In this document: one piece after another, positions 1 to 8,067 of the stretch
How the letters are laid out: each line of letters starts with the position of its first letter
Position numbering within the stretch: the first letter of the stretch is position 1
Source: Pontibacter sp. E15-1
GTDB taxonomy: Bacteria > Bacteroidota > Bacteroidia > Cytophagales > Hymenobacteraceae
Assembly: GCF_022601975.1 (NCBI RefSeq)
Contig: NZ_JAKVIR010000012.1
Coordinates: 1 to 64,000 of the forward strand
Direction: 5' to 3'
Length of the DNA: 64,000 nt
Notes under the pieces: model-generated
Databases searched by the model: none
Told to the model about the DNA's origin: nothing
What the model saw: only the letters and a program-made list of their open reading frames with translations
Made by a program: the position numbers and the translations under genes

Positions 1-75
1 TATGGTATGGTATGGTATGGTATGGTATGGTATGGTATGGTATGGTATGGTATGGTATGGTATGGTATGGTATGG
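1..75. repeat. (TATGG)15 pentanucleotide tandem array
   Basis: Fifteen perfect head-to-tail copies of TATGG, equivalent to GGTAT, run from the first base of the window until they break into unique sequence at 76. The left boundary is not visible, so the array may be longer. It can be translated as a repeating M-V-W-Y-G peptide, but this is a by-product of the 5-bp period. The same pentamer is over-represented throughout the window. Confidence 0.97.
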
Positions 76-109
76 CTCGCGCCGGATAGAACTTAGCCAG
101 GAGATGCCG

Positions 110-2597: not shown

Positions 2598-3605
2598 ATG
2601 AAAAACTTACTTCTATACAGTACACTGTTTGCTGCCACGTTGCTCACCTTCTCGTCCTGCGACGTGGAGGATGAGATTGACTTTCCCCTGCCCGGGCATG
2701 GCGATAAGGCAAACGCATACATTACCAGCAATACCAGCGGCATGCTCACGATGCTCAACGGAGAGGACCTATCCGATGTGAAGGCCAGGCAGAAGAATAT
2801 CGCCTCGATGGATGCCGACGGCGTCTACTACAACGAAGACAGAAAAGAAATTATCCTGGCGTCCAGATCGACCAACCGAATCGAGATTTACCAAAAGCGC
2901 AAAGACGGCTCCCTGGAGATCAAAACCACCAGCGACCCCAGGTTTACCAACGCACGCGAGATAGCCGTAAGCGGCAACATGATTGTGGTGGTGCAGGACG
3001 GAGACCCGGCCCTCAACAACAACATGAACAAGCTGTATGTGTATGAGCGCACCCCGAGCGGGGTCCGTTACCGCAACACATACGATGTTGATTTCAACCT
3101 GTGGGGCATTCATGCCGAGGGCTCTACGCTCTTCGCCGTAGTCGACAATTCCGGCGACATCGTGTCTTTCGACAATTTCTTTTCCAACCCGAGTGGTATG
3201 ATTCAGCCAACGAAGCGGGTGACAATTGAAGGCCTGGTGCGCACGCACGGCATCACATACTCTAAGATGGATGACAGAATGGTGCTGACCGACGTAGGCG
3301 ACGCGGCCGTGGCCGACGATGGCGGAATCGTGGTTATCAACAACTTCCATGCGCTGTATAGTGGTATGGCCAACGGCGGAACGATTGGTGCCGATGACCA
3401 GATCAGGATTGAGGGCGGCAACACCATGCTCGGCAACCCGGTGGATGTAGGGTATGATCATGAGTCGAAGAGCATCTATGTGGCCGAAAGAGCCAACGGG
3501 GGTGGCAAGGTGCTCATCTTCAGCATGCCTGCCGCAGACGGAAACCCTTCTCCTATCTATGTTAAAAACGTGGCCGGAGCTTCCTCTATCTACGTGATGC
3601 AATAG
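2598..3605 (+). CDS. Surface or periplasmic lipoprotein, probably beta-propeller
   Basis: A 335-residue lipoprotein of unknown function. The signal peptide ends in the lipobox TFSSC, with the lipidated cysteine at residue 21, followed by an acidic DVEDEIDF stretch that in Bacteroidota can favour surface export. The rest contains recurring short blade-like units (AYITSNTSGMLTML, GVYYNEDRKEIILASR, REIAVSGNMIVVVQDG, GIHAEGSTLFAVVDNSG, GITYSKMDDRMVLTDVG, SKSIYVAERANGGGK), consistent with a beta-propeller that might bind a ligand or protein. No catalytic signature is visible. A strong terminator follows. The fold is inferred from repeat periodicity only. Confidence 0.7.
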   Translation: MKNLLLYSTLFAATLLTFSSCDVEDEIDFPLPGHGDKANAYITSNTSGMLTMLNGEDLSDVKARQKNIASMDADGVYYNEDRKEIILASRSTNRIEIYQKRKDGSLEIKTTSDPRFTNAREIAVSGNMIVVVQDGDPALNNNMNKLYVYERTPSGVRYRNTYDVDFNLWGIHAEGSTLFAVVDNSGDIVSFDNFFSNPSGMIQPTKRVTIEGLVRTHGITYSKMDDRMVLTDVGDAAVADDGGIVVINNFHALYSGMANGGTIGADDQIRIEGGNTMLGNPVDVGYDHESKSIYVAERANGGGKVLIFSMPAADGNPSPIYVKNVAGASSIYVMQ

Positions 3606-3615
3606 CAATTTCCAT

Positions 3616-3664
3616 AGTGCAAAAAAAGACCGGGCCTCAATGGGGTCCGGTCTTTTTTTGCACT
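3616..3664. terminator. Strong intrinsic terminator
   Basis: AGTGCAAAAAAAGACCGG pairs with CCGGTCTTTTTTTGCACT around a short loop. Its long A and T arms mean it can end both the lipoprotein gene (plus strand) and the RayT gene (minus strand). Confidence 0.92.
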
Positions 3665-3683
3665 GTTTTCTGCGGAACCAGCT

Positions 3684-4229
3684 TTACTCCAGCAGCAAGA
3701 TATCGAGTAAGCCACGCTCCCCAGCATAGTTGCAGGCAGAACTGTAGCGGTAATGCTCCGGCTCACTCACCCATTCTGCCCGTACCGGGTTCTGGTGTAT
3801 ATAGCCTAGCTTCTGGTCGATAAAGGCATTGCTGATGAGCTCCTTGGCCTCGTTGCCGTCCTGCCAGAGTTTATAGTGTCGTACTTTCGGGTTTTGTATG
3901 GCATTGAACTGGAAACGGTGCAGCAGCCACTGCCTCCGGCTCTCGGGTTCTTCCTGTAGGGCAGCCACGATTTTCCGGCTGGTAAACTGCTTAAAATCCC
4001 GCAGGATGTCCGAGAGGTTCTTGCCCTCTTCAGCCGAGGCAATCAGGTGCAGGTGGTTGCTCATCAGGCACCATGCATGAAGGCGCAAGCCTTTGTTGTG
4101 CTGGCAGTACTGAAGCGCATCCACGATAATGTGTTTATATATGGGCCGCGTAAACACATCCACCCAGTCCACCACCGTCATGGTCAGAAAGTATATGCCG
4201 CCGGGTATAATCCTGTTTTTGAGCCCCAT
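3684..4229 (-). CDS. REP-associated tyrosine transposase (RayT, Y1 HUH family)
   Basis: A 181-residue single-strand DNA transposase-like protein of the Y1_Tnp family (PF01797). It opens with the RayT-like GGIYFLTMTVVDWVDVF, carries the HUH metal motif as SNHLHLIA near residue 58, and has the presumed catalytic tyrosine in QKLGYIHQNPVRA near residue 142. Such proteins cut and rejoin REP palindromes and are usually single-copy, domesticated-looking genes. Four REP-like hairpins lie just upstream of the gene (4286-4401), the expected arrangement of a REPtron. All family motifs are intact, so the enzyme is probably active. Confidence 0.93.
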   Translation of the reverse strand: MGLKNRIIPGGIYFLTMTVVDWVDVFTRPIYKHIIVDALQYCQHNKGLRLHAWCLMSNHLHLIASAEEGKNLSDILRDFKQFTSRKIVAALQEEPESRRQWLLHRFQFNAIQNPKVRHYKLWQDGNEAKELISNAFIDQKLGYIHQNPVRAEWVSEPEHYRYSSACNYAGERGLLDILLLE

Positions 4230-4285
4230 GCGTAGCTATACTTCTAAAAGCAAGAAGCTGTTCTGCTGTTATGGATTTTCTGCTG

Positions 4286-4307
4286 TTTCGGATTTCTTAA
4301 TCCGAAA
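4286..4307. repeat. REP-like hairpin 1 (loop TCTT)
   Basis: TTTCGGATT pairs perfectly with AATCCGAAA across the loop TCTT. It is the copy nearest the RayT start and shares the GGATT core with its neighbours. Confidence 0.88.
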
Positions 4308-4318
4308 CTTTTCCTGAA

Positions 4319-4336
4319 GCGGATTTCCTAATCCGC
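4319..4336. repeat. REP-like hairpin 2 (loop TCCT)
   Basis: GCGGATT pairs with AATCCGC across the loop TCCT. It has the same orientation as hairpin 1, judged by the pyrimidine-rich loop. Confidence 0.87.
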
Positions 4337-4350
4337 GTTAGCAGAACCAC

Positions 4351-4368
4351 GGGGATTAGGAAATCCCC
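4351..4368. repeat. REP-like hairpin 3 (loop AGGA)
   Basis: GGGGATT pairs with AATCCCC across the loop AGGA, the reverse complement of the loop in hairpin 2. This copy therefore lies in the opposite orientation, as in a BIME. Confidence 0.88.
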
Positions 4369-4377
4369 GGCAGGTGG

Positions 4378-4401
4378 CTTTCGGACTAGGAAGTCCGAAA
4401 G
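4378..4401. repeat. REP-like hairpin 4 (loop AGGA)
   Basis: CTTTCGGACT pairs with AGTCCGAAAG across the loop AGGA. It has the same orientation as hairpin 3. The A-T to G-C change next to the loop is compensated on the other arm, which suggests that the structure is conserved. Confidence 0.88.
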
Positions 4402-4446
4402 AGCGGAAAGAGCGGGAACAGCATAGCTTTCCATATATAAATCCAC

Positions 4447-7400
4447 CTATATCAGCTTACACTCGCCCACGCCCATACCTTTGATAGTCTCCAGAAACAG
4501 TTTCGGGTCAATGCGGTATTTGCGGGAGTACATGGGCAGCACCAGTTTCTCTTCCGGCACATGGAGCGTGATCTCCAGGCGTTTCTGGCCAGCGCTCTCC
4601 GTAATGGCGGTCTCCAGGGCCTCGGCCAGGTTCGGGGTGAAGTGCTGCATGTTGATGTTGAGCTGCACGCCCTGCGCCATCTTGTCCATCACATCGCCGA
4701 GCAGCTGGATGTTGGTCGGCTTCAGTTCCCACTGGTCCTCGGTTTTATACCGTAGCTGCACCTTACCCCGGATAAAGAGGTATAAACCCGTTTTCAGGTA
4801 GGGCGAGAACTTCACGTAGTCCTCCCCAAAAAGGGCCATCTGCATGGTCGAGTCGTAGTCTTCGATGGAGAACAGCGCGAAAGGGTTGCCGTTCTTGGCC
4901 GTCCGGATCACCACTTCCGATACCATGCCGGCCACGTTCACATCGCGGCTCTTGTAGTCTGTAATCCTGTCTAGCGAGCAGGTGCAGTAGGAGTCGATCT
5001 CCAGCTTAAACTGGTCGAGCGGGTGGCCCGACATGTAAAAACCGACCACTTCCTTCTCGCGGCGCAGCATCTCGGCCTGTGTCCAGACGGGCACTTCCGG
5101 TATTTTGGGCATCGGGGCGGCCACGGCGGCCCCACCGCCAAACAGCGACTGCTGCGCTGCCTGCAACTCTGCCTGGTAGCTGTTTCCGAAGCGCACTGCT
5201 TTCTCTAGCAAGCTGATATTCTCCCCCTCGGGCACCTCCATCAGCTGCGCCCGGTGGTATAGCTCCCACGAGTCGAAGGCACCGGCCAGGGCCATGCTCT
5301 CAAACGTCTTCTTGTTCACAGCCCGCAGGTTCACGCGCTTGGCAAAGTCGAAGATATCCTGGTACAAGCCTTTTTCCCTTTCCGAGATGATGGCATCCAC
5401 GGCCGATTCGCCGGTTCCTTTTATCGCGGCCAGACCAAAGCGAATGTCGCCCTGCTCGTTCACGTTAAATTTCAGCAACGATTCGTTCACGTCCGGCCCC
5501 AGCACCTGTACGCCCTGCTTGCGTGCCTCCTCAATAAAGAACGTCACCTTCTTGATGTCGTTCATGTTGTTGGTGAGCACGGCGGCCATATACTCGGCCG
5601 GGTAATGGGCCTTCAGGTAGCCCGTCTGGTATGCCACCACTGAGTAGGCGGCAGAGTGGGAGCGGTTAAAGCCGTACTGGGCAAACTTCTCCATCACGTC
5701 GAACACCTCAGAGGCTTTCTTCGCCGGGATCTTGTGGATCTCCCCGGCTCCAGCAATGAATTTCTCACGCTCCTCGGCCATCTTCTTCATGTCCTTCTTA
5801 CCCATCGCACGGCGCAGCAAGTCGGCACCGCCAAGTGAGTAGCCCGCCAGAATCTGGGCGGTCTGCATAATCTGCTCCTGGTATACCATGATCCCGTAGG
5901 AGTACTCCAGGATCGGTTTCAGCAACTCGTGCGGGTATTCTACCTCCTCGCGGCCATGCTTCCGGTTAATAAAGTTCGGGATGAACTGCATCGGGCCCGG
6001 GCGGTACAAGGCGTTCATCGCGATCAGGTCTTCAATGTTGGTTGGCTGCAGGTCCTTGAGGTACATGCGCATACCCTCCGACTCAAACTGGAACGTACCG
6101 ATGGTGTCGCCGCGCTGGTAGAGCTGGTAGGTTTTCTCGTCGTCTATCGGAATCTCGTCAATATCAACCTCCACCCCGTGGTTTTTCTTAATCAGCTCGA
6201 TGGCATCTTTGATAATGGTCAGGGTTTTCAGACCCAAAAAGTCCATCTTCAGCATACCCGCACTTTCAATCACCTTGCCGTCAAACTGGGTTACCAGCAG
6301 GTCGGAGTCTTTTGAGGTTGATACCGGGATGTAGTTGGTGATGTCGTCGGGGGCGATGATAACGCCGGCGGCATGTATACCTGTGTTTCGGATGGAGCCT
6401 TCCAGCTTCTCGGCCAGGCGCAACGTGGCGCCGCGGTGGTCGTTGCCCTCACGGATGGCAGCCAGCTCCAGATTCTCGATAAAGGCCTTGGCCAACGTGG
6501 TGCCCGGTGTTTCCGGCACCATCTTGGCCAGCTCATTGGCCTCGGCCAGCGGCAGGGAGGTGGTGCGGGCCACGTCCTTTATAGACGATTTGGCGGCCAT
6601 GGTGCCGAAGGTGATGATCTGGGCCACTTGCGTTTTGCCGTATTTCTCCACCACGTAGTCAATCACGCGCTGGCGGTTCACGTCGTCGAAGTCAATATCG
6701 ATATCGGGCATCGACACACGCTCCGGGTTCAGGAATCGCTCAAAGAGCAGGCTATACTTAATCGGGTCGATGTTGGTGATACCCACGCAGTAAGCCACCG
6801 CCGAGCCAGCCGCCGAACCACGGCCCGGCCCCACGGCCACACCCATGTCGCGACCCCGGTTGATGAAGTCCTGCACAATGAGGAAGTAGCCGGCAAAACC
6901 CATTGTCTCGATGATGCGCAGCTCGTAGTCGAGGCGCTCCTCGGTTTCTGCGTTTATCTCCCCGTAGCGCTTAGCGGCACCCATATACGTCAGATGGCGC
7001 AGAAAGGCGTCGGCGTTGGCGTGCTCCGGCGGTATAGGGAAGTTGGGCAGCAGGATATCGCGCTTCAGTTTCGGCGGCGTGATCTTGTCTACGATCTCGT
7101 TGGTGTTGTCTACCGAGGCAGGCACGTCCTTGAACAGTTCGTTCATCTCGGCCTGCGTCTTAAAGTAGAACTGGTCGTTGGGGAAGCCGAAGCGCGTTTT
7201 TGGGCCCGCCTCATCAATGCGGTTCAGCATCTGGCGCACACTGGACATATGGCCGTGCTGGTTGCGCACGTTGTCCACGGTGTCGTAAATCACCTTCTGG
7301 TCATCCGACAGGAAGCGGTAGTACTTCGTTTGGAAATCCCCGACAGGCGTGCTCTGGTCCTCGCCGGTGTTCACGCACAGCAGGATATCGTGGGCGTTCC

Positions 7401-8067
7401 AGTCGTCCTGGTCCACATAATGCGAGTCGTTGGTGCAGATCACCTTGACGTTATACTTGAGCGCAAACTTGAGGAGCACCTGGTTCACGTCTTCCTGGCT
7501 CATACCGGTTCCGTCGATGTTCTGGATGCCGTGGCGCTGCAGCTCAATGTAATAGTCGTCGCCAAACAGGTCGAGCCACCATTTCAGCAGCTCCTCGGCC
7601 GCTTCCTCGCCTTTCCAGAGAATGGTTTGCGGCAGCTCGGCTCCGATGCAACAGCTAGTGGCGATCAGGCCCTTGCTGTATTTCTGAAGCAGTTCCTTGT
7701 CGATGCGCGGCCATTTGCTGTATATGCCCTCGATGTAGGAGAGGGAGCAGAGCTTGGCCAGGTTCTGGTAGCCGTCCTGGTCTTTGGCCAGCAGCAACTG
7801 GTGGTGGCGCACATCCTTCACTTCCTTTGTAAAGGTTTTGAGGTGGCGGTCCTTTACCAGGTAAAACTCGCAGCCCACGATCGGCTTCACGTTATACTTG
7901 TTCGCCTCGGCCACAAAGTTGAAGGCGGCAAACATGTTGCCGTGGTCGGTCATGGCAACGGCGGGCATGCCATCGGCCTGCGCCTTTTTCATGAGCGCGC
8001 TGATGCTCGCCTGGCCGTCGAGCAGCGAGTACTGGGTATGGGTATGTAAATGCGAATAAACAGGCAA
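4447..8067 (-). CDS. dnaE: DNA polymerase III subunit alpha
   Basis: The 1206-residue replicative polymerase (DnaE1 type). The N-terminal PHP domain begins directly with SHLHTHTQYSLLDG and has TDHGNM. The catalytic palm contains GPGRGSAAGSAVAY and the aspartate cluster MPDIDIDFDD around residues 390-450. The finger and tandem HhH regions follow, and a C-terminal OB domain is visible as VNVAGMVSEVVIRTAKNGNPF with ALFGEDYVKF. The length is normal for the family. The best start is a TTG at 8067, because the PHP motif begins within ten residues and no ATG fits. It stands alone, next to the REP cluster at its 3' end. Confidence 0.97.
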   Translation of the reverse strand: MPVYSHLHTHTQYSLLDGQASISALMKKAQADGMPAVAMTDHGNMFAAFNFVAEANKYNVKPIVGCEFYLVKDRHLKTFTKEVKDVRHHQLLLAKDQDGYQNLAKLCSLSYIEGIYSKWPRIDKELLQKYSKGLIATSCCIGAELPQTILWKGEEAAEELLKWWLDLFGDDYYIELQRHGIQNIDGTGMSQEDVNQVLLKFALKYNVKVICTNDSHYVDQDDWNAHDILLCVNTGEDQSTPVGDFQTKYYRFLSDDQKVIYDTVDNVRNQHGHMSSVRQMLNRIDEAGPKTRFGFPNDQFYFKTQAEMNELFKDVPASVDNTNEIVDKITPPKLKRDILLPNFPIPPEHANADAFLRHLTYMGAAKRYGEINAETEERLDYELRIIETMGFAGYFLIVQDFINRGRDMGVAVGPGRGSAAGSAVAYCVGITNIDPIKYSLLFERFLNPERVSMPDIDIDFDDVNRQRVIDYVVEKYGKTQVAQIITFGTMAAKSSIKDVARTTSLPLAEANELAKMVPETPGTTLAKAFIENLELAAIREGNDHRGATLRLAEKLEGSIRNTGIHAAGVIIAPDDITNYIPVSTSKDSDLLVTQFDGKVIESAGMLKMDFLGLKTLTIIKDAIELIKKNHGVEVDIDEIPIDDEKTYQLYQRGDTIGTFQFESEGMRMYLKDLQPTNIEDLIAMNALYRPGPMQFIPNFINRKHGREEVEYPHELLKPILEYSYGIMVYQEQIMQTAQILAGYSLGGADLLRRAMGKKDMKKMAEEREKFIAGAGEIHKIPAKKASEVFDVMEKFAQYGFNRSHSAAYSVVAYQTGYLKAHYPAEYMAAVLTNNMNDIKKVTFFIEEARKQGVQVLGPDVNESLLKFNVNEQGDIRFGLAAIKGTGESAVDAIISEREKGLYQDIFDFAKRVNLRAVNKKTFESMALAGAFDSWELYHRAQLMEVPEGENISLLEKAVRFGNSYQAELQAAQQSLFGGGAAVAAPMPKIPEVPVWTQAEMLRREKEVVGFYMSGHPLDQFKLEIDSYCTCSLDRITDYKSRDVNVAGMVSEVVIRTAKNGNPFALFSIEDYDSTMQMALFGEDYVKFSPYLKTGLYLFIRGKVQLRYKTEDQWELKPTNIQLLGDVMDKMAQGVQLNINMQHFTPNLAEALETAITESAGQKRLEITLHVPEEKLVLPMYSRKYRIDPKLFLETIKGMGVGECKLI

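What the first reader, a model, noticed from the sequence alone, without database searches (positions are those of the whole stretch)
3684..4401. RayT transposase beside four REP hairpins in two orientations
The hairpins share a GGAYT core with 4-nt loops, TCTT and TCCT in the first two and AGGA in the last two, so two copies face each way. One base pair differs by a compensated change. This is the architecture of a REPtron/BIME. Such pairs have been studied mainly in Enterobacteria and Pseudomonas, less so in Bacteroidota.
Basis: partly seen in the sequence, partly recalled or inferred. Interest (0 to 1): 0.6.

Follow-up and report, generated by a model that had tools for sequence, protein, structure and literature searches.

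The report
Four-hairpin mobile repeats with tyrosine transposase
A tame transposase gene in a Pontibacter-like bacterium sits next to a compact element of four DNA hairpins, copies of which are scattered between genes in the genome and were probably spread by that enzyme; it is an unusual, little-described form of a known kind of bacterial repeat.

Summary
In detail: a RAYT/TnpA_REP gene (3684-4229, minus strand) lies beside four hairpins in two orientations. They form one discrete 123-bp element (4282-4404): GCT, 10-bp hairpin, CTG, 7-bp hairpin, 14-nt centre, then the same inverted, ending in AGC. At least 14 full copies are dispersed in this genome; the 19 hairpin-bearing places examined are intergenic. 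Elements of the same geometry lie beside RAYT relatives across Pontibacter. Stems covary (18 of 34 pairs change on both sides), while feet (GCT 149/154, CTG 147/154 arms) and loops (TC..) stay fixed. One copy is missing from 8 of 8 relatives at a conserved gene pair. The enzyme fits TnpA_Y1 subclass 2.6 (Bertels group 5), whose flanking 'atypical' structures were noted in print as lacking GT[AG]G. It is a REPtron, but not of the GTAG type: the predicted foot is absent and the repeat is an inverted pair of double hairpins. In some distant Bacteroidota the RAYT gene lies between inverted double hairpins, and a genome of the same genus has 0.56-0.75-kb non-coding elements with such ends, which suggests a MITE-like unit moved in trans. 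No cleavage or transposition was shown.

The parts
3684..4229 (-). rayT: Y1 (HUH) REP-associated tyrosine transposase, 181 aa; HUH motif NHLH, WQ, catalytic-tyrosine motif YIHQNP
   Evidence: Y1_Tnp 33.4 bits; NF047646 108.8 bits; PDB 4er8 TnpA_REP, E 0.0071; motifs read from the sequence
4282..4404 (.). 123-bp four-hairpin element, from GCT to AGC; it ends 52 nt before the rayT start codon
   Evidence: many of the cross-genome matches listed stop at or within a base of these ends (query 7/8-130); model matches 1-123; GCT in 149 of 154 arms
4285..4308 (+). H1, outer hairpin, 10-bp stem, loop TCTT
4314..4316 (+). CTG, 5' of the inner hairpin H2
   Evidence: 147 of 154 arms
4319..4336 (+). H2, inner hairpin, 7-bp stem, loop TCCT
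4337..4350 (.). central linker, 14 nt (14 nt in 52 of 77 elements)
4351..4368 (-). H3, inner hairpin, inverted, loop TCCT on the minus strand
4371..4373 (-). CTG (CAG on the + strand) of the inverted arm
4378..4401 (-). H4, outer hairpin, inverted, 10-bp stem, loop TCCT on the minus strand
4447..8067 (-). dnaE, DNA polymerase III alpha subunit: usual neighbour of rayT in the genus (not part of the element)
   Evidence: NF004226 1330 bits
3616..3664 (+). strong terminator-like hairpin after the gene at 2598-3605; marks the other side of the rayT insert (not part of the element)
   Evidence: a comparable hairpin between that gene and dnaE in G027, G021, G002, G044, sequences, by eye

Best explanation
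This is a REPtron of the Bacteroidota type (TnpA_Y1 subclass 2.6). A RAYT kept at a fixed place beside dnaE acts in trans on a 123-bp non-autonomous element made of two inverted double hairpins. Proposed steps: (1) the element becomes single-stranded, for example on the lagging strand, and folds (inferred; folding computed); (2) RayT recognises the loop (first bases T-C), the stem and the CT-bearing feet GCT and CTG (conservation shown; recognition inferred); (3) it cuts at a C|T foot by its tyrosine, as others measured for E. coli, S. maltophilia and Marinomonas TnpA_REP (inferred here), and joins the strand elsewhere; (4) copies accumulate in intergenic spaces, none seen between divergent genes (distribution shown). 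Stem sequence drifts with compensated changes, while feet, loop polarity and spacing are held.
For: RAYT family match. Fourteen full copies of fixed geometry among 20 places fetched in this genome. 0 structure-only hits in 5 x 64 kb of mononucleotide-shuffled sequence. 18 of 34 pairs with a change on both sides, 125 such cells against 30.5 +/- 4.0 in shuffles and at most 5 when partners are slid. Feet and loops conserved in elements picked by structure alone: GCT 149/154, CTG 147/154. In the 1.15 kb beyond the 3' end of dnaE, 15 of 16 loci with rayT have a double hairpin by the scan and 0 of 14 without. Genomes with the orthologue have more matches (median 11 against 1 DNA matches, n = 23 and 27, p about 1e-6). 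One copy absent from 8 of 8 relatives at a conserved convergent gene pair, another from the 4 relatives in which both neighbours were read. Mean identity of copies in G000 0.88, between genomes 0.77.
Against: No direct evidence of binding, cleavage or movement. No base-exact empty site: intergenic sequence is too diverged. G039, G042 and G048 have many matches (17, 12, 12) without an orthologue, which needs loss of rayT: a fragment remains beside dnaE in G042, none was found in G039 or G048. Conversely G011 and G023, with rayT, have only 2 matches each. The stem type of the rayT-adjacent element does not strictly predict that of the dispersed copies (G018, G029 mixed). The high within-genome likeness is not general: 0.75-0.81 in G004, G014, G018, G025, G029 and 0.69 for the two copies of G003. 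Species are not independent in the copy-number test, its query is of one stem type, copies can count on both strands, and the CM counts mix full and half elements.
Confidence: 0.72

Rival explanations
1. The four-hairpin elements are kept for a host function (bidirectional terminators or mRNA stabilisers at gene ends); RayT is only their maintainer or an unrelated neighbour.
For: The 19 hairpin-bearing places examined are between genes (two overlap small ORFs of 87 and 100 aa), 10 convergent, 9 tandem, 0 divergent; H1 followed by TTTT scores as terminator-like.
Against: The copy at C44:104893 lies beside a terminator-like hairpin that 8 of 8 relatives have without the element (by eye); the association with rayT beside dnaE is near-exclusive; feet outside the stems are conserved, which a terminator does not need.
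Confidence: 0.15
2. The copies are relics of an autonomous element that is no longer active; RayT serves the cell in another way and the upstream element is its own regulatory leader.
For: rayT is usually at one fixed place beside dnaE; in 15 of 18 loci with 4-nt-loop arms upstream of rayT the nearest arm has one orientation, 28-63 nt from the start in 13 of them.
Against: G000 copies are up to 99% alike and on average more alike than copies of different genomes; at least one is seen in this lineage only.
Confidence: 0.1
3. Copies spread by gene conversion or recombination between elements and not by RayT.
For: Mosaic copies with arms of different stem types; rayT inverted between two elements in G018 and G012, which looks like recombination.
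Against: Recombination between copies does not by itself place an element in a site that had none.
Confidence: 0.08

Closest known systems
TnpA_Y1 subclass 2.6 (Bertels group 5) with 'atypical secondary structures', Quentin et al. 2018, PMC6006769
   Same: 181 aa against 179 in their table (which I read as the length); NH[LIV]H, WQ and YIH[QN]NP motifs; Bacteroidetes; flanking structures without GT[AG]G, with copies elsewhere in the genome.
   Different: The parts I read describe the structures only as 'atypical', weaker and found by eye; the double-hairpin arm, GCT/CTG feet, quadruplet unit and covariation are described here. Their Table S1 and Fig. 7 were not readable here.
E. coli / Stenotrophomonas / Marinomonas TnpA_REP with REP-BIMEs (groups 2 and 3; PMC8266576)
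   Same: RAYT beside palindromes that are dispersed in intergenic DNA and come in inverted pairs; CT dinucleotides at the feet, the site where those enzymes cut.
   Different: No GTAG foot; two tandem hairpins per arm; 14 full copies found, where that paper gives about six hundred REPs for E. coli K12.
TIRtrons / TIRYT (Di Nocera et al. 2013, PMC3733652)
   Same: RAYT-like genes flanked by inverted repeats, some 'double palindromic'; some distant relatives here show [double hairpin]-gene-[inverted double hairpin].
   Different: Their figures were not readable; their shared TIR motif GGGGWSAS is not the foot found here.
IS200/IS605 insertion sequences
   Same: HUH/Y1 chemistry, subterminal hairpins, a contacted T in the loop (PMC8266576).
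   Different: NF033573 scores 22.8 bits, below its cut-off of 55; one close copy at a usually fixed place.
MITEs / REPINs
   Same: Short, gene-less, near-palindromic repeat, here thought to be served in trans.
   Different: No base-exact insertion known; each end is a double hairpin.

Membership tests
RAYT / TnpA_REP | Y1-HUH core, over the curated cut-off of NF047646 | tested here: met
   108.8 bits, cut-off 80; only PDB match up to E 0.01 is TnpA_REP 4er8
RAYT / TnpA_REP | Cleaves its cognate hairpins as single strand | not testable with these tools
   bench assay needed
TnpA_Y1 subclass 2.6 | NH[LIV]H, WQ, YIH[QN]NP; about 179 aa | tested here: met
   SNHLHL, LWQD, YIHQNP in the 181-aa protein against the table passage of PMC6006769; of 74 sequences (window and 73 relatives) HUH 70, WQ 70, YIH[QN]NP 37, looser Y..NP 66
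TnpA_Y1 subclass 2.6 | Atypical flanking structures lacking GT[AG]G, with copies elsewhere | tested here: met
   paper sections 12 and 25
[quoted passage not shown]
   no structure was predicted
REPtron | RAYT gene with its repeat family next to it and dispersed | tested here: met
Canonical REP (GTAG type) | 5' GT[AG]G at the hairpin foot | tested here: not met
   5' of the outer hairpin GCT in 149 of 154 arms
BIME / REPIN | REPs in inverted pairs | tested here: met
   inverted pair of double hairpins; single arms also occur
IS200/IS605 | NF033573 over cut-off | tested here: not met
   22.8 bits against 55
MITE | Precise insertion shown by an empty site | tested here: inconclusive
   absent at gene-pair level in 8 of 8 relatives, not base-exact

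The most novel reading that the evidence does not exclude
The functional unit of subclass 2.6 is a double-hairpin end read by RayT at two CT-bearing feet, and any DNA between two such inverted ends can be moved: the rayT gene itself (some distant Bacteroidota), about 0.45-0.65 kb of non-coding DNA (G026), or only some 14 nt (the quadruplet). The quadruplet would be the minimal, gene-less derivative of an ancestral RAYT transposon, linking REPs to IS200-like elements by intermediates that still exist.
Probability: 0.35. Interest if true: 0.68.

Novelty: new variant of a known kind. Interest (0 to 1): 0.5.

Why it matters
How REPs arise and spread is open, and the enzymes tested at the bench in the paper read here (PMC8266576) are of the GTAG type (groups 2 and 3). 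This system gives a small, well-bounded substrate with covarying stems and nearly invariant feet, in a phylum whose REP-like structures had been left as 'atypical'. It makes testable whether RAYTs can read a two-hairpin end, and whether REPs are stripped-down transposon ends.

Tried and rejected
GTAG/GTGG foot: rejected. Strict co-evolution of stem type between the rayT-adjacent element and dispersed copies: not borne out (the 40 regions fetched were picked from the best-scoring rows, so they are not a random sample). Base-exact empty sites: tried at C44:7703, C30:18125, C44:104893 and between G011 and G026; only gene-pair-level gaps came out. For C30:18125 one relative, G027, has the two neighbours side by side by the coordinates and no double hairpin; this was not aligned. 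Enrichment of AGC outside the ends: 0.029 per site near against 0.023 farther out, not pursued. Covariance-model copy numbers at E 1e-4: found to mix full elements, single arms and both strands, and only 71 candidates per genome were scored, so used with caution. Rfam: 11 matches up to E 1 in 3500-4600, none at its gathering score; the two over the element are a microRNA model at E 0.5. Tree of 74 RAYT proteins: 4-nt-loop loci (labels) are clustered (4 changes against 18.5 shuffled) but not one clade; several rows are long or fragmentary. Structure prediction was not run.

The 42 elements of alignment A1 were chosen by structure (at least 30 of 34 pairs), so 98.7% paired cells is partly by selection; the counts of changes on both sides are less affected, and the unpaired feet were no part of the choice. 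Nineteen of 73 RAYT loci showed no double hairpin by the structural scan, L045, one of the nearest relatives, among them. The shuffles keep base composition only.

Full report
What is there. RayT is encoded at 3684-4229 on the minus strand (181 aa). It passes the curated cut-off of the REP-associated tyrosine transposase model (108.8 against 80 bits), hits Pfam Y1_Tnp, and its only PDB match up to E 0.01 is TnpA_REP, 4er8, at E 0.0071. The HUH motif (NHLH), WQ and YIHQNP are all present. Between it and dnaE (4447-8067) are the four hairpins, at 4285-4308, 4319-4336, 4351-4368 and 4378-4401. The element is a near-palindrome: GCT - outer hairpin (10-bp stem) - TTTTCCTGAA - inner hairpin (7-bp stem) - 14 nt - inner inverted - GGCAGGTGG - outer inverted - AGC. 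The core pattern has 5 matches in the window, 0.15 expected. Single-strand DNA folding gives -39.9 kcal/mol, z = -9.7; in that minimum the two inner hairpins pair with each other, while the outer ones stand alone. The genus is inferred: the nearest named RayT relatives are Pontibacter.

Copies in the genome. GGAYTNNNNARTCC has 68 forward matches in the 5.59-Mb genome, 22 for the reversed control. Of 20 places fetched, 14 hold a full four-hairpin element (at least 30 of 34 pairs), 5 hold partial elements or halves, and 1 holds no exact match. One search lists at least one more, on C16 (84% identity), not fetched. The 19 hairpin-bearing places lie between genes by a simple ORF rule, two of them overlapping small ORFs of 87 and 100 aa: 10 between convergent, 9 between tandem and 0 between divergent genes. 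Five paralogues of RayT (36-48% identity) are in the genome, and a family search adds three weaker matches.

Boundaries and architecture. Many BLAST matches in other genomes stop at, or within a base of, GCT and AGC (query 7/8-130). A scan using only base pairing and spacing finds 0 such elements in 5 x 64 kb of shuffled sequence. In 77 distinct elements found by structure alone across the loci held, the outer hairpin is preceded by GCT in 149 of 154 arms and the inner by CTG (2 nt away) in 147 of 154; loops read on the arm's own strand nearly always begin with TC; the centre is 14 nt in 52 of 77. In the 42-row alignment A1, 18 of 34 pairs have changes on both sides, 125 cells against 30.5 +/- 4.0 in shuffles and at most 5 when slid. 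The rows were selected by structure, which inflates the share of paired cells.

The genus. In the 1.15 kb beyond the 3' end of dnaE, a RayT orthologue is found in 16 of the 30 dnaE loci fetched; 15 of these 16 have a double hairpin or full element there by the scan (not G025) and none of the 14 without RayT has. By eye, G047 and G035 show remnants. In G018 and G012 rayT is inverted and lies between two full elements. In G027, G044, G021 and G002 the gene at 2598-3605 and dnaE are direct neighbours with only a terminator-like hairpin between them, so RayT plus element is an insert relative to that order. Of 50 genomes, 23 have a RayT match of at least 70% identity or, in G012, a broken one of 67-68% (in G030 the match is on the other side of dnaE); they have a median of 11 DNA matches to the element against 1 in the other 27 (p about 1e-6; species are not independent, the query is of one stem type, copies can count on both strands). 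Exceptions: G039, G042 and G048 have 17, 12 and 12 matches without an orthologue, and G011 and G023 only 2 with one. In G042 a RayT fragment remains beside dnaE, in G039 and G048 none was found there, and in G049 half an element remains without RayT.

Mobility. The element at C44:104893 lies between a stop codon and a terminator-like inverted repeat; in 8 of 8 relatives searched the same two genes and a comparable inverted repeat are there without the element (the repeat by eye). The element at C44:7703 is absent between the same genes in the four relatives in which both genes were read side by side (G014, G028, G017, G030), and none of the other 29 loci fetched has a double hairpin (many of these hold only one of the two genes). 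The insertion points are not base-exact. Copies in G000 are on average 88% identical to each other, 77% between genomes; in other genomes the within-genome mean is 0.69-0.81, and 0.91 for the two copies of G015. The stem type of the RayT-adjacent element does not strictly predict the dispersed copies (G018 and G029 are mixed), so stem sequence is unlikely to be the specificity signal; the feet, loop and geometry are better candidates.

Wider view. Around 73 RAYT relatives, mostly from Bacteroidota (75 found; L115 and L119, short, left out), the structural scan finds 114 double hairpins in 54 loci, none in shuffled copies, and 10 in 282 kb of far flanks; 85 of 114 are preceded by GCT although GCT was not used to find them. 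Distant relatives mostly have 3-nt loops (for example GATT-TGC-AATC). With GCT required, double hairpins remain in 46 of 73 loci; among 3-nt-loop loci the nearest upstream one points toward the gene in 18 of 19, the nearest downstream one is inverted in 10 of 18, and in 6 of the 10 loci with one on each side the gene is enclosed by an inverted pair. In G026, 10 of 13 loci read are from it or G011 with a single arm by eye and most of the rest too (12 of 13 in all); some of these arms are ends of longer elements: four loci of G026 hold inward double-hairpin ends with homologous non-coding DNA between, spanning 560-747 bp, three with both ends found by the scan and one with its second end by BLAST only. 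This suggests that the double hairpin is a transposon-like end and the quadruplet its shortest form; that is the novel reading, not a shown fact.

Mechanism. Passages of PMC8266576 report that E. coli TnpA_REP cuts single-stranded REP at CT 5' or 3' of the hairpin, that S. maltophilia TnpA_REP cuts at CT and a Marinomonas one at CT and CA. Both feet here carry CT. I infer recognition of loop, stem and foot, cutting at C|T and joining elsewhere on single-stranded DNA; none of this was tested.

Known or new. Quentin et al. 2018 (PMC6006769; abstract, passages and sections 12, 25 and 31 read) define subclass 2.6: 179 aa in the table, Bacteroidetes, NH[LIV]H / WQ / YIH[QN]NP, flanked by atypical structures without GT[AG]G, found by eye, with copies in the genome. 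This locus fits. Di Nocera et al. 2013 (PMC3733652; passages and section 16) describe TIRtrons, some with double palindromic repeats. Searches of the open library for RAYT with Bacteroidetes, REPIN, group 5, Pontibacter and related terms listed no title or abstract opening that describes a four-hairpin unit or a GCT foot; subscription papers and supplements were not seen. Hence: a new variant of a known kind.

Noticed in passing
G026 (L330:6551-7110, L383, L384, L385): Dispersed non-coding elements of about 0.56-0.75 kb with inverted double-hairpin ends and homologous interiors; possible long MITEs of the same system.
   Followed up: partly
G018 and G012 dnaE loci (L202, L206): rayT is inverted and lies between two full four-hairpin elements, as if flipped by recombination between them.
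   Followed up: no
L045, about 28-88 nt upstream of rayT: Instead of the quadruplet there is one long 60-nt palindrome nesting two hairpin copies.
   Followed up: no
L229, L230, L234, L237 (G003, G012, G040, G048): Several elements abut a shared sequence like TTAARTTGACGGCATTGGGG, perhaps another dispersed repeat or a preferred target (by eye).
   Followed up: no
G000:C3:74998, C5:130421, C12:119639, C11:189357, C13:32249: Five further RAYT-like genes (36-48% identity to RayT) in the same genome; their own repeats were not examined.
   Followed up: no
window 2-76: Short tandem repeat at the window start that reads as repeated MVWYG in the ORF at 2-283.
   Followed up: no
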